A stretch of 64,000 nt of DNA. Source: Kitasatospora setae KM-6054. Lineage in GTDB: Bacteria > Actinomycetota > Actinomycetes > Streptomycetales > Streptomycetaceae. The position numbers and the translations under genes are program-made. The stretch spans positions 6,661,001-6,725,000 of the forward strand of contig NC_016109.1 in the NCBI RefSeq assembly GCF_000269985.1. The letters are read 5' to 3'. Below, piece by piece: positions 54,161-64,000 of this stretch (positions are counted from its first letter, which is position 1; each line of letters opens with the position of its first letter). Under the pieces are notes generated by a model. The model saw nothing but the letters and a program-made list of their open reading frames with translations, was not told where the DNA came from and ran no database searches.

Positions 54161-54862
54161 TCAGGAGACCGCGGTCAGGTGGGCGTAGACCACGGTGTTC
54201 GAGTCGTAGCCGGTGCGCCGGTCGTACCGGCCGCCGCAGGTGATCACGCGCAACTCGGCGCGGCCCGCCGGGGCGTACACCTCGGCGGCGGGGAAGGCGG
54301 CCTTCGGGTAGGAGCGCACGGCGTCGACGGTGAAGACGGCGGTGCGGCGGTCCTGCCGGGTGACGGTGAGGGTCAGGCCGGGGCGCAGCAGGCCGAGCCG
54401 GTACAGCACGCCCGGGCCGCGCCGGTCGTCGACGTGGCCGACCACCACGGCGGTGCCGTCCGCGCCGGGCGCCGGGGCGTCGCGGTACCAGCCGACCAGG
54501 TCGCGGCGGCCCAGCGGCGGCGTGGCCAGCGCCCCCGCCGGGTCCAGGCCCAGCGGGGTGAAGGCGGCGTCGACCGCGATCGACGGGATCCGCAGTCGCA
54601 CCGGGTCGGACGGCCCGAGCGCCGCGACGCCCGGCGCGGGCCGGGCGCTCCCGGCCGCCCCGCCGGGCGACGGCGGGGCCTGCGCGGGTGGGGGCGGGGG
54701 CTGACTGGTGGTCAGCCCGTCGTCGACCAGCCAGACACCGGACAGCAGCGCGACGGCCGCGGTGCCGACCCGCACGGTCCGCCGCAGCCGGGCCAGCCGG
54801 GCGGCGCGGGCGGCACCGGCATGCCGCCCGCGCCGCCCGGCCGGCCGCTCCGCAGGGGTCAA
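54161..54862 (-). CDS. Class F sortase
   Basis: 233 residues. An N-terminal membrane anchor (VGTAAVALLSGVWLVDDGL) is followed by a Pro-rich linker, then the sortase barrel: PVRLRIPSIAVDAAFTPLGL, RRDLVGWYRDAPAPGADGTAVVVGHVDD with the catalytic His in VGHV, VYAPAGRAELRVITCGGRYDRRTGYDSNTVVYAHL with the catalytic Cys in ITCGG and Arg in RRTG. It attaches proteins to the cell wall or trims C-terminal signals; class F sortases are common in actinomycetes. The start overlaps the preceding surface protein stop (ATGA), suggesting that protein is a substrate or partner. Confidence 0.88.
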   Translation of the reverse strand: MTPAERPAGRRGRHAGAARAARLARLRRTVRVGTAAVALLSGVWLVDDGLTTSQPPPPPAQAPPSPGGAAGSARPAPGVAALGPSDPVRLRIPSIAVDAAFTPLGLDPAGALATPPLGRRDLVGWYRDAPAPGADGTAVVVGHVDDRRGPGVLYRLGLLRPGLTLTVTRQDRRTAVFTVDAVRSYPKAAFPAAEVYAPAGRAELRVITCGGRYDRRTGYDSNTVVYAHLTAVS

Positions 54863-55207
54863 CGGCGGGAGCGGCGGCGCCGGCGGACGACCAGGTAGCC
54901 CGCCCCCGCGATCAGGGCGGCGCCGACGGCGACCTCCGCCGGGTTCAGGTCACGCGAGGAGCCGCCCGCGCCGGCCGCCACCCCGCCCTGCGGCGTCCGC
55001 CCCGGGCCCGACCCGTTCGCGCCACCGCCACCGCCCGGACCGCCCGTACCGCCGGACCCCGGGCCGCCCTTGCCTGACGGGGAGGAGCCGGTCGACGGCG
55101 ACGGCGAGGGGGAGACGCCGCTGCCGACGGGGGACGGCGAGACGCTGCCCGAGGGGCTCGGCGACGGGGAGGGCGACGGGCCGGGGCCGTCGTCGACGGC
55201 CCGGGCG
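54859..55207 (-). pseudogene. Surface protein C-terminus (Pro/Ser-repeat, TM and Arg tail), 5' end lost
   Basis: The frame ends with DLNPAEVAVGAALIAGAGYLVVRRRRRSRR, a membrane helix with a polybasic tail typical of wall-anchored proteins. It is preceded by a PSPSPSPSPSG and GSGGTGGPGGGGG stalk. The expected signal peptide is missing. Upstream, the same strand encodes the N-terminus of an MFS transporter in another frame. It overlaps the class F sortase by 4 nt, which strongly ties the original gene to that sortase. The gene appears to have lost its 5' end by a deletion fused to the MFS gene. Confidence 0.55.
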
Positions 55208-55249
55208 GAGCCTCGGCACGACGGCGCCGACGGGGGCGGTGAGGACCAT

Positions 55250-55499
55250 CGGCGCACCGCAGCCCACGAGGACGGCAGGGGCGCCGCGCCGCGGGCCGGC
55301 GCATCCACCGGCCCAGGACCAGCGCGCCCCGGCCGCCGTCCGGCCCCAGGGCGAACGCGAGCCACGCCACGGCGACGACGGTCATGCCGTCGCCCGGGTC
55401 GGACAGCGCGAAGGCCGGCATCAGCCGCCGGAAGGTCCGGTCGGCGAACAGGGCGCGGTAGGGGCCGGGCAGCAGGCGTCCCGCGGTCGCTGAGGGCAT
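55250..55499 (-). pseudogene. N-terminal MFS transporter remnant
   Basis: From ATG 55499 the frame reads LLPGPYRALFADRTFRRLMPAFALSDPGDGMTVVAVAWLAFALGPDGGRGALV then LGRWMRR, the first helix-loop region of MFS exporters. The usual 20-25 residues between two GALV elements (helix 2) are absent: GGRGALV is followed directly by LGRWMRR, so short-repeat deletion is likely. After RPAARR the frame dissolves into Arg/Pro-rich sequence, and another frame carries the surface protein tail. Confidence 0.6.
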
Positions 55500-55582
55500 G
55501 CGGGCCAACGTCGCGCTTCAAGCGGGCTTGAAGTCAAATCCGGTCCGAGGAACGAGTCGTAGCGGGCCGGGGCGGCGAGCAG

Positions 55583-61955: not shown

Positions 61956-62193
61956 TCCTCCGGGACTGAGAGCGCCGCCGGCCGCCGGACGTTGCGCACC
62001 TGCCGGAGAGTGTGTCCCGGCTCACACCCGGGCCGCCGCCCCGGCCGCCCGTCCGCGCACCTCAAGTAGGCTGACCCCGGCCGGACATGACGGTGCCACG
62101 ACGAAACGGCGGACGCGACGGACGCGCCCCCGCGTCCGGGCGCCGGACGTGGGGGACCGGCCGACGGGGACGGACACGAAGGAACAGGCACCA
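61956..62193. promoter_or_regulatory. Divergent intergenic region, sigma factor and NTPase promoters
   Basis: GAAGGAACAG lies 8-14 nt before the GTG 62194 of the NTPase. ACCTCAAGTAGGCTGACCCC at ~62060-62079 holds a TAGGCT-like -10, and the rest is GC-rich without a gene. Confidence 0.4.
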
Positions 62194-64000
62194 GTGGACA
62201 GCGACAACCGCGCCGGCGTCGGACTCGCGGACCGGGCAGAGGAGCGGCCGGAGGAGCGGCCGGAGGACCGGCCGGGAGGCCGGGCGGAGGACCGGCCGGA
62301 CGGGCCGGCGGGCTGGCGGTACCTGCTGGACGACGGCGTCGACCCCGCCGGACGGATACCCGTCCACCTCGTCCGCGGCGGCACCCCGCCTGGCCCCGGC
62401 GGCGACCGCGCCCACCGGCCCAACCCGCGCCACGGCCGCCCGCTGCCCCAGCCGCCCGCCGCCGCCGACGCCCCCGCGCTGCCCCCGCTCGAAGCCGGCC
62501 GCCGCCCCGCCGGACGCGCCCTGCTGGCCTGGCTGGAGGACACCCGCGCCCCCCGGCTGTGCCGCATCGCCGGCTCCTCCGGCAGCGGCCGCACCCACCT
62601 GCTGACCTGGCTCGCCGCCGCCTGCCCGCCCGACCACCCGCGCCCCGGCCGCCGCGTGCACGCCCTGCTGGACGCCGAGGGCCTCACCGTCCGCTCCGCC
62701 ACCGCCCGGCTCGCCGACCTGCTCGGCCTCACCGCCGGCGAACCCGCCGAACTCCTCGAAGCGCTCCAGGACGGCACCCCCCGCACGGTCGTCGTCACCG
62801 ACCTCGACCGGGCCGGCGGCCCCCGCCTCCCCGGCACCCCCGAACGCCTCGCCCGCGAACTCCTCGTCCCGCTGCTCTCCGTCCCCTGGCTGCTGCTGGT
62901 CGTCGAAGCCGCCCACGGCCCCGCCGCCGACGCGCTCACCGCCGCCGCCCCCACCGGCGCCGTCCTCGACCTCGACCAGCCGCAGTGGACCGACCCCGAC
63001 AAGTACGCCGCCTGGTGCGCCCGGCTCACCGGCCACCCCGTCGACCCCGCCGCCACCCACCCCAGCCCCGGCCTCGCCCAGCTCGCCGCCCGCACCCCCG
63101 GTGCCGCCCCCGACCCGACCCGGCCGCCCGCCGAACGCGCCACCGCCCTCGCCGAGGCGTGGTGGGACGCCGTCCCCGGCCCCGAACGCGCCGCCCTCAC
63201 CGCGCTGGCCGGCGCCGACGGCCCGATCAGCACCGCCCTGTGGGCCACCCTCCCCGGCACCGACCCCGACGGCGTCGCCGCCGCCACCCGCCTGCTGCCC
63301 CCGCCGCCCATCGCCGACCGCTGGCGCCTGCGCCCGCAGCAACTCACCGACCTGGTCGCCGCCGACAGCCCGCCGGTCGACCACGCCGCCCTGATGTGGG
63401 AGGTCGCCGGCGGCATACCCGTCCGCCCCGACGGCGGCCCCGACCTCGCCGCCAGCGACCCCGAACGCCTCGCCCTGCTCGTCCGGCACGCCTCCGCCGC
63501 CGACCCCGGCACCCCGCTGCTCGGCGAGATCGACCTGCTGCTGCACGCCGAACCCGCCACCGTCACCGCCGCGTTCCAGCGCGCCGAGGACGCCGGCACC
63601 CCCGCCACCCCGCTCGCCGAAGCCTGGCGCCGCGCCGCCCCCGACCGGACCGCCACCGCCCGCCCCGCCGACCGCGCCGCCGTCCTGCACGCCCACCTCA
63701 CCGGCCGGCACGACGAGGCCGCCGCGCACTGCGCCGCCCTCGCCGCCCGGGTCGACACCCGCTGGCGCGCCGTCTGGCAGCACACCCCCGCCGCCGGCCC
63801 CTGCGCCGCCACCCTCGGCTTCGGCCCGCTGGCCGGCCGGCTGCTGCTCACCGACGCCGCCGGACTCCACCTCGCCGACCCGGCCACCGGCGAGGTCCTG
63901 CACAGCTCCGCGCCACCGGCCGAACCGCACCCGCGCGCCCTGACCGCCACCCCGTTCGGCGGCGCCCTGCTGCTGAACGCCTCCGGCACGCTCCGCCCGC
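62194..64000 (+). CDS. STAND-like P-loop NTPase with beta-propeller C-terminus (3' end outside window)
   Basis: Open frame from GTG 62194 to the window edge, at least 602 residues, no stop. The N-terminus has a charged repeat (RPEERPEDRPGGRAEDRPDGPA). The P-loop is near residues 123-140: LCRIAGSSGSGRTHLLTWL, with Arg where Walker A usually has Lys (GxxxxGRT). Walker B-like TPRTVVVTDLDRAGG is near 200, and a winged-helix-like region follows (ERAALTALAGADGPIST). After ~540 come propeller-type repeats (AATLGFGPLAGRLLLTDAAGLHLADPATGEVLH). STAND ATPases with WD40-like repeats act as signal sensors, including phage defence; the specific role here is inference. The gene is divergent from the SigJ-type factor. 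Confidence 0.65.
   Translation, partial: MDSDNRAGVGLADRAEERPEERPEDRPGGRAEDRPDGPAGWRYLLDDGVDPAGRIPVHLVRGGTPPGPGGDRAHRPNPRHGRPLPQPPAAADAPALPPLEAGRRPAGRALLAWLEDTRAPRLCRIAGSSGSGRTHLLTWLAAACPPDHPRPGRRVHALLDAEGLTVRSATARLADLLGLTAGEPAELLEALQDGTPRTVVVTDLDRAGGPRLPGTPERLARELLVPLLSVPWLLLVVEAAHGPAADALTAAAPTGAVLDLDQPQWTDPDKYAAWCARLTGHPVDPAATHPSPGLAQLAARTPGAAPDPTRPPAERATALAEAWWDAVPGPERAALTALAGADGPISTALWATLPGTDPDGVAAATRLLPPPPIADRWRLRPQQLTDLVAADSPPVDHAALMWEVAGGIPVRPDGGPDLAASDPERLALLVRHASAADPGTPLLGEIDLLLHAEPATVTAAFQRAEDAGTPATPLAEAWRRAAPDRTATARPADRAAVLHAHLTGRHDEAAAHCAALAARVDTRWRAVWQHTPAAGPCAATLGFGPLAGRLLLTDAAGLHLADPATGEVLHSSAPPAEPHPRALTATPFGGALLLNASGTLRP

What the first reader, a model, noticed from the sequence alone, without database searches (positions are those of the whole stretch)
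62194..64000. Partial STAND-like NTPase with Arg in Walker A and beta-propeller repeats
The 602+ residue open frame to the edge has a P-loop with GSSGSGRT, a Walker B-like VVVTDLDRAG and later WD40-type strands. Proteins like this include signalling and phage-defence ATPases. The Arg in Walker A is unusual.
Basis: partly seen in the sequence, partly recalled or inferred. Interest (0 to 1): 0.55.

Follow-up and report, generated by a model that had tools for sequence, protein, structure and literature searches.

The report
Orphan relative of toxin-linked STAND proteins
A soil bacterium's gene makes an NLR-like protein, a molecular switch joined to a propeller-shaped sensor, and its closest relatives sit beside secreted ADP-ribosylating toxins with propellers that seem to change in step with the toxin, so it may be a spare guard against such toxins.

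Summary
The gene starts at GTG 62194, runs past the edge and ends at window coordinate 64599 (801 aa), with a GSSGSGRT P-loop, a VVVTDLDRAG strand and a C-terminal propeller. A model of an 85%-identical orthologue shows a STAND core (Z 19.7 to 8bob) and a propeller, probably six-bladed. The Arg is not a freak: 32 of 68 full-length Kitasatospora members have it.

The new point is context. In Kitasatospora, 17 of 20 type-VII-signal (PF21725) proteins with an ADP-ribosyltransferase (ART) domain have a family gene on their 3' side; 0 of 27 without one do. In 9-11 such pairs, propeller divergence follows ART divergence (r 0.60-0.94), beyond the NTPase core, secretion domain and other module genes. 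The window gene lies inside this clade but has no toxin nearby; its genome holds a second, toxin-linked copy. Best reading: an orphan copy of a STAND-propeller partner, probably immunity-like, of T7SS ART toxins. Phage defence has no support. Functional steps are inferred from sequence; shared ancestry and small numbers limit the statistics, and the ancestry-aware test is not significant.

The parts
62194..64000 (+). Window part (residues 1-602) of the 801-aa gene; the gene continues to 64599 outside the window (L009:695-3100)
   Evidence: open frame and continuation
62180..62183 (+). AGGA, possible ribosome-binding site 10 bases before the GTG
   Evidence: sequence
62311..62442 (+). Residues 40-83: worn remnant of the N-terminal part of the T7SS-associated domain NF033532 (WRYLLDDGVDPAGRIPV...RPNPRHGRP)
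   Evidence: Recognised by NCBIfam, below its cut-off, in relatives L018 and L020 and own paralogue L036, not in the window protein itself; window segment 12.7 bits against a small profile of relatives, best of 1000 shuffles 12.2; six orthologues 13.9-28.1
62482..63438 (+). STAND NTPase core (P-loop domain to winged-helix region), residues about 97-415
   Evidence: Model of orthologue L012: residues 98-477 match 8bob chain C (Z 19.7), 98-520 match a STAND protein with TPR sensor (6mfv, Z 19.6)
62572..62595 (+). Walker A GSSGSGRT; the Arg codon is 62590-62592
62788..62817 (+). Walker B-like strand VVVTDLDRAG
   Evidence: the first D is D in 42, E in 14, G in 11, R in 1 of 68 members
62968..62994 (+). 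DLDQPQWTD signature after the P-loop domain, invariant in the 13 sequences of A1
   Evidence: it varies more widely in the 68 members
63439..63753 (+). Helical linker region, residues about 416-520
   Evidence: model of L012
63754..64000 (+). Start of the propeller (residues about 521-777; most lies beyond the window, to 64524)
   Evidence: model of L012 residues 524-780, best match Pizza6 (6f0t) Z 22.7

Best explanation
The gene encodes a STAND-type protein: a P-loop/winged-helix switch (with Arg in place of the Walker A Lys) joined to a propeller. It is an orphan copy of a family whose members, in Kitasatospora, are often encoded on the 3' side of type VII secretion (T7SS) toxins with ADP-ribosyltransferase domains. 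In those pairs the propeller most likely recognises the ART domain inside the cell, as an immunity factor or guard, and the nucleotide-binding core sets the state of the protein. Arg for Lys suggests binding with slow or no hydrolysis, so a slow or one-way switch. The window copy has no toxin and would act as an orphan guard against ART toxins of neighbours or kin. Shown: architecture, orthology, ART-specific linkage of relatives, correlated divergence of propeller and ART. Inferred: binding, immunity, nucleotide state, orphan role.
For: Fold. Linkage: T7SS_signal neighbours in 17 of 25 'set b' loci (L036, L049-L072), 0 of 11 window-orthologue loci, 0 of 34 short-form loci. All 17 neighbours carry ART domains (12 ADPrib_exo_Tox, 5 Scabin-like). 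Of the other 30 T7SS_signal places in the genus (47 in 27 of 70 genomes at E <= 1e-20) 3 have ART domains. So 17 of 20 ART toxins against 0 of 27 others have a family gene (Fisher p 4e-10; one of the 17, L071, has a broken copy). Family gene on the 3' side in 17 of 17, same strand in 12. Propeller-ART distance correlation 0.90 (n 11), 0.94 (n 10), 0.60 (n 9 without near copies); partial r 0.68, 0.72, 0.53 with p 0.0006, 0.0006, 0.002; the other parts give partial r -0.26 to 0.26. Window clade lies inside the 34-row clade that holds the T7SS-linked members (SH-aLRT 99). Own genome: second copy beside a T7SS_signal-ART gene and two EccC over the cut-off.
Against: The window gene and the 11 orthologue loci show no T7SS_signal, EspC or SseB match nearby, and 81 kb around it show none and no ART. 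The Fisher test ignores shared ancestry: independent pairs on supported branches give 3 the same way, 0 the other, 2 without difference, not significant. Mantel tests rest on 9-11 related loci; without the propeller in the model the NTPase core also correlates with ART (partial r 0.39 given the T7 domain, p 0.007), and the T7 domain keeps partial r 0.26, p 0.048 at n 11. Three ART toxins lack a family gene, two of them with an NF033532 gene instead, so NF033532 could be the immunity protein. Eight set-b loci lack a T7SS_signal gene; family members in other genera had none in 12 of 12 loci looked at. About 800 aa is large for an immunity protein (recalled). The window clade evolves fast: median dN/dS 0.45-0.59 in folded parts against 0.16-0.34 in three neighbour genes. 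In 2 of 11 orthologue loci (L047, L048) the N-terminal part matches in another frame than the core.
Confidence: 0.4

Rival explanations
1. The family is a T7SS substrate adaptor or chaperone: it holds ART-type substrates in the cytosol and hands them to the secretion machine, and NF033532 or another small protein gives immunity.
For: A T7SS-associated domain (NF033532) is tied to the family: N-terminal piece in L018, L020 and own paralogue L036, full copy at the C-terminus of L021. In the five Scabin-like loci (L064, L067-L070) a separate match to the L021 copy lies between toxin and family gene.
Against: A general adaptor should also accompany the 27 non-ART T7SS_signal proteins; 0 of 27 have it. 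The correlated divergence is with the toxin domain more than the secretion domain (partial r for T7 -0.02, 0.13 and 0.26).
Confidence: 0.2
2. The window gene is a MalT/Apaf-like regulator with an ordinary cellular role; toxin linkage of its relatives says nothing about it.
For: Stable orphan position: divergent sigJ-like gene in 10 of 11, thioesterase gene in 9 of 11, HTH-TPR gene in 9 of 11 orthologue loci. Short relatives sit between purL and fba/pyrE in many genomes, a housekeeping place.
Against: It was found in only 11 of 70 genomes of the genus and evolves faster than three neighbours, unlike a household gene. No output DNA-binding or signalling domain was recognised.
Confidence: 0.2
3. 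It is an Avs-like antiphage STAND sensor.
For: Same general architecture of switch plus sensor repeats (recalled for Avs).
Against: PADLOC 0 families; no effector domain recognised in the protein; no viral-contig relatives confirmed; linkage of relatives is to toxins.
Confidence: 0.04
4. It is a decaying paralogue that no longer works.
For: No partner toxin; raised dN/dS, about 0.77 in the N-terminal part, single pairs up to 1.54; apparent frame change in the N-terminal part of 2 of 11 orthologues (L047, L048); broken family copies elsewhere (L071, L072).
Against: Open over 801 codons here; one frame over the whole match in 9 of 11 orthologue loci, and in L047 the core and propeller are open too (L048 also has an assembly gap); median dN/dS below 1 in every region; P-loop identical in all 11.
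Confidence: 0.16

Closest known systems
STAND NTPases of the MalT / Apaf-1 type
   Same: P-loop domain, winged-helix region and C-terminal sensor; 8bob chain C (entry on the maltose system; the name MalT is recalled) Z 19.7 over residues 98-477, STAND-TPR 6mfv Z 19.6, Apaf-1 3shf best Foldseek hit E 1.9e-13, with rmsd 14.8 over both parts, so the domains are placed differently
   Different: Arg instead of Lys in Walker A; varied Walker B acid in the family; no recognised effector domain; genomic tie of relatives to T7SS ART toxins
Polymorphic-toxin immunity proteins
   Same: In relatives: gene on the 3' side of the toxin in 17 of 17 pairs, propeller diverging with the toxin domain
   Different: Large NTPase with a propeller; [quoted passage not shown] the window copy has no toxin
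NF033532 (lone7para_assoc) type VII secretion-associated proteins
   Same: N-terminal remnant in the window clade; fused to or beside relatives
   Different: The window protein is not called by the model; NF033532 is a 162-position model that covers neither NTPase nor propeller
Avs / antiphage STAND proteins
   Same: Switch plus sensor layout (recalled)
   Different: No PADLOC match, no effector domain recognised, relatives beside toxin genes

Membership tests
STAND NTPase | P-loop NTPase domain followed by winged-helix region | tested here: met
   Model of L012 (pLDDT 79.1, pTM 0.78) aligned to 8bob chain C and a STAND-TPR protein (6mfv) at Z 19.7 and 19.6 over 334 and 325 residues
STAND NTPase | Walker A with Lys | tested here: not met
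   GSSGSGRT in the window protein; Lys in 36 of 68 family members, so the family as a whole holds both states
STAND NTPase | Acidic Walker B | tested here: met
   VVVTDLDRAG here; D 42, E 14, G 11, R 1 of 68 in the family
STAND NTPase | C-terminal repeat sensor | tested here: met
   Propeller, residues 524-780 of L012, Z 22.7 to Pizza6; seven-bladed G-beta chains (recalled) follow at Z 19-20, so the blade number is likely six, not certain
STAND NTPase | Nucleotide binding, hydrolysis and oligomerisation | not testable with these tools
   needs protein
WD40 repeat family (Pfam PF00400) | Match over the curated cut-off | tested here: not met
   Window protein 18.3 bits against 27; relative L023 30.3 bits
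Polymorphic-toxin immunity proteins | Gene next to the toxin gene | tested here: not met
   Window gene: no ART or T7SS_signal match in 81 kb. Relatives: 17 pairs
Polymorphic-toxin immunity proteins | Neutralises the toxin | not testable with these tools
   co-expression needed
NF033532 T7SS-associated protein | Match over the curated cut-off | tested here: not met
   No match for the window protein even at E <= 10
Antiphage STAND (Avs and others in PADLOC) | Match to a PADLOC model | tested here: not met
   0 families at E <= 1

The most novel reading that the evidence does not exclude
A bacterial STAND/NLR-like protein is the cognate guard of a secreted toxin: its propeller reads the ART domain of a T7SS polymorphic toxin and co-evolves with it, and orphan copies such as the window gene form a memory of toxins met. 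That would be an immunity principle in which a signalling NTPase replaces the usual small toxin-binding protein, with an Arg P-loop marking a non-hydrolysing switch.
Probability: 0.3. Interest if true: 0.8.

Novelty: new variant of a known kind. Interest (0 to 1): 0.52.

Why it matters
It links two fields that rarely meet: NLR-like STAND switches and interbacterial T7SS toxins. If linked members bind and neutralise ART toxins, STAND proteins would join the immunity proteins, and an Apaf-1-like layout would be seen serving toxin immunity in bacteria. The family holds natural Lys and Arg P-loops in near relatives, so the need for hydrolysis can be tested directly. Even without that, it marks an unnamed component of a recurring SseB / EspC-like / T7SS_signal-ART / (NF033532) module of Kitasatospora.

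Tried and rejected
Phage defence: PADLOC none; viral contigs gave 13 pattern stretches, none confirmed as a relative. Plasmid origin: each of two queries matched 4 of 72,556 plasmid records (5 different records in all), all Streptomyces, identity under 42%. Single-sequence domain calls were uninformative: Pfam WD40 below cut-off, NCBIfam only a 12-bit DnaA-homologue P-loop match. phmmer's best matches were propellers Ika8 and Ika4 (E 6.8e-18 and 1.1e-8; that they are designed is recalled), telling only the fold. Arg as a mark of toxin linkage: rejected, since toxin-linked L057, L063, L067, L069, L070 have Lys and short unlinked L086, L088, L091, L093 have Arg. Tree-corrected linkage test was too weak: 3 same, 0 opposite, 2 undecided. 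Library searches for prior description (open-access PMC only; three of them returned nothing) listed no paper that I recognised, from titles and opening abstract lines, as describing this family. For PMC3482391, PMC7159879, PMC8195603 and PMC11217815 I saw passages from term searches only; PMC10539506 only as a listing.

Rows dropped or not counted: L058_p_7574 (fragment without P-loop) left out of 69 rows for the Lys/Arg count; members broken or cut (L048, L058, L071, L072, L105) are not among the 68; L016 (assembly gap) left out of A1 and A2; L071 (broken copy) left out of the distance tests; hits G014:C18, G068:C4 and G028:C112 not fetched. Flanks differ: about 7 kb for set b, 6 kb for window orthologues, 5 kb for the short form; linked toxins lie 123-1402 bases from the conserved part of the first family gene, so this should not make the contrast. 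Searches scored at most 15, 3 and 7 candidates per genome, so presence counts are lower bounds. ART and T7SS_signal were sought with profiles that I built from the 17 linked toxins; the Pfam counts agree with them. NF033532, EspC and SseB neighbours are tblastn matches to single seeds.

Because of the frame changes I lowered the best reading from 0.42 to 0.40 and raised the decay rival from 0.14 to 0.16.

Full report
What is in the sequence. The frame begun at GTG 62194 runs off the window after 602 codons. The same chromosome (window = G000:C1:6661001-6725000 of 8,783,278 bases) shows that it ends at window coordinate 64599, 801 aa. The only Pfam WD40 match (E 0.0035, below cut-off) lies at residues 659-689, outside the window. 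PADLOC gives nothing and NCBIfam only a 12-bit P-loop match.

Relatives. A scan of named genomes gave 13 loci: 12 in records named Kitasatospora and one named Saccharothrix sp. ST-888. Seven are close to the window protein (73-84% best-segment identity) and six distant (41-50%). In the genus, 45 of 70 genomes hold a family member at E <= 1e-20. Eleven of the 70 hold the window orthologue, counting one with an assembly gap; I judge this from scores and synteny. In the wider family 59 of 150 genomes in 9 of 17 genera match; in the phylum sample 2 of 296, one of them the own genome. The own genome has two full members: the window gene (1207 bits) and G000:C1:7421536-7423935 on the minus strand (808 bits), besides five weak propeller-region matches in two larger frames (19.7-29.5 bits). 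The two members are 40% identical over 792 columns.

Fold. AlphaFold2 on the orthologue L012 (85% identical to the window protein) with 11 relatives gave pLDDT 79.1 and pTM 0.78; residues 1-40, 45-60 and 79-106 are unreliable. Foldseek's best matches are Apaf-1 structures (3shf, E 1.9e-13, but rmsd 14.8 over both parts). VIA-align gives 8bob chain C (maltose-system entry; MalT by recall) Z 19.7, 4.2 A over 334 residues (model 98-477), and a STAND protein with TPR sensor (6mfv) Z 19.6, 4.9 A over 325 residues (98-520). The C-terminal part (524-780) matches Pizza6 propellers best (Z 22.7, 3.0 A over 231 residues), with G-beta propellers at Z 19-20. So STAND plus propeller is right, by fold; six blades are likely.

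The Arg. In 68 full-length members the residue is Lys in 36 and Arg in 32 (one P-loop-less fragment dropped from 69 rows). All 11 window orthologues have Arg. On a tree of the NTPase domain made without that column at least 4 changes are needed, 2 of them forced by supported branches. The Walker B acid varies too (D 42, E 14, G 11, R 1). I infer weakened hydrolysis in part of the family; nothing here measures it.

Genomic context of relatives. Of 25 loci with the longer, toxin-clade type of member (L036, L049-L072), 17 hold a protein with the type VII secretion signal domain PF21725 in the fetched flanks, all 17 with an EspC-like match and 16 with an SseB match. None of the 11 window-orthologue loci and none of the 34 short-form loci hold a T7SS_signal match, although L102 has SseB and a partial EspC-like match. 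Pfam shows ADP-ribosyltransferase domains in all 17 (12 ADPrib_exo_Tox, 5 Scabin-like). As a control I took every T7SS_signal place in the genus at E <= 1e-20 (47 in 27 of 70 genomes). The 30 not linked to the family carry RHS, CdiA_C, Ntox28, Ntox24, Gln_amidase, nuclease or other domains or none recognised; 3 carry ART domains (L122, L123, L131). Thus 17 of 20 ART toxins have the family gene (in L071 a broken copy) and 0 of 27 others do (Fisher p 4e-10). This p ignores ancestry. On a tree of the secretion domain alone, ART needs at least 7 changes and the family gene at least 5; independent pairs give 3 agreeing, 0 opposing and 2 undecided, too few to be significant. Sister cases that fit are L067 against L124 and L070 against L125 and L127; L122 beside L126 and L131 beside L069 do not, as L122 and L131 have ART without the family gene.

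Gene order and co-divergence. The family gene lies on the 3' side of the toxin in 17 of 17 loci, on the same strand in 12 and convergent in 5, its conserved part 123-1402 bases away. In ADPrib_exo_Tox loci with an intact family gene, pairwise distances of the propeller follow those of the ART domain (r 0.90, n 11; 0.94, n 10; 0.60, n 9 with two near copies removed). Partial correlations, holding the NTPase core, helical part and secretion domain (and EspC and SseB for n 10), stay at 0.68, 0.72 and 0.53 (permutation p 0.0006, 0.0006, 0.002). The same partial measure for each other part lies between -0.26 and 0.26, the highest being the secretion domain at n 11 (p 0.048). Given the secretion domain alone, the NTPase core also correlates with ART (0.39, p 0.007), the propeller more so (0.77). 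This is the best hint that the propeller recognises the toxin domain. It is a correlation in few, related loci.

The window gene. Its clade sits inside the supported clade (SH-aLRT 99) that contains the toxin-linked members; branches just above it have only moderate support, and the root was placed at the midpoint. It carries a worn remnant of the N-terminal part of NF033532, which the model itself does not call. No ART, T7SS_signal, EspC or SseB match occurs in 81 kb, the window and 17 kb beyond it. Its orthologues share a stable neighbourhood (sigJ-like in 10 of 11, thioesterase in 9 of 11, HTH-TPR in 9 of 11). dN/dS medians are 0.45, 0.59 and 0.59 in the folded parts and 0.77 in the N-terminal part (single pairs range from 0.14 to 1.54), against 0.16, 0.27 and 0.34 for three neighbours. 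In L047 and L048 the N-terminal part matches in another frame than the core, a frameshift or an error of sequencing. The core is constrained, but evolves fast. The own genome holds the linked paralogue, its T7SS_signal-ART neighbour and two EccC over the cut-off, so the parts of a secretion route are present there.

Reading. Most likely this is an orphan copy of a STAND-propeller partner of T7SS ART toxins, immunity-like and reading the toxin through its propeller. The adaptor rival is weakened by the absence of the family from 27 non-ART T7SS_signal proteins but is kept alive by NF033532 fusions and by two ART loci with NF033532 and no family gene (L123, L131). [quoted passage not shown] Later work may differ; my searches cover open-access papers only. 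Orphan immunity proteins as protection from non-self effectors are described in the abstract opening of PMC10539506 (listing). A catalytically inactive STAND NTPase as a component of a different conflict system is described in PMC7159879 (passage).

Noticed in passing
L073-L101 (Kitasatospora loci): A short form of the family (about 560-660 aa, mostly Lys P-loop) sits between purL and fba/pyrE in many genomes, often after a maleylpyruvate-isomerase-like gene; its role is unknown.
   Followed up: partly
L064, L067, L068, L069, L131: T7SS_signal proteins with Scabin-like ART domains whose tails hold an NPxYxP-like stretch that resembles the start of NF033532 and the RPNPRHGRP stretch of the window protein.
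   Followed up: no
L057 (= L021) and L063: NF033532-type domain at the C-terminus of the STAND-propeller protein (called by NCBIfam in L021; tblastn match in the same frame in L063), with the toxin gene convergent.
   Followed up: partly
L071, L072: Broken copies of the family gene (frame interrupted), one of them (L071) still beside an ART toxin gene.
   Followed up: no
L118-L121, L124-L128, L130: Large T7SS_signal proteins (about 1550-1700 aa) among the 30 of A4, 11 of which match RHS repeats; most have SseB/EspC-like neighbours but no STAND gene.
   Followed up: partly
window 54161-54862 and 54859-55521, minus strand: By eye: a class F sortase-like gene next to a Pro/Ser-rich protein with a C-terminal membrane anchor; not tested.
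   Followed up: no
L023 / L073: The contig of the record named Saccharothrix sp. ST-888 has the same length (31294) as G033:C1062, which genome search puts in the window's genus, so the name may be wrong.
   Followed up: no
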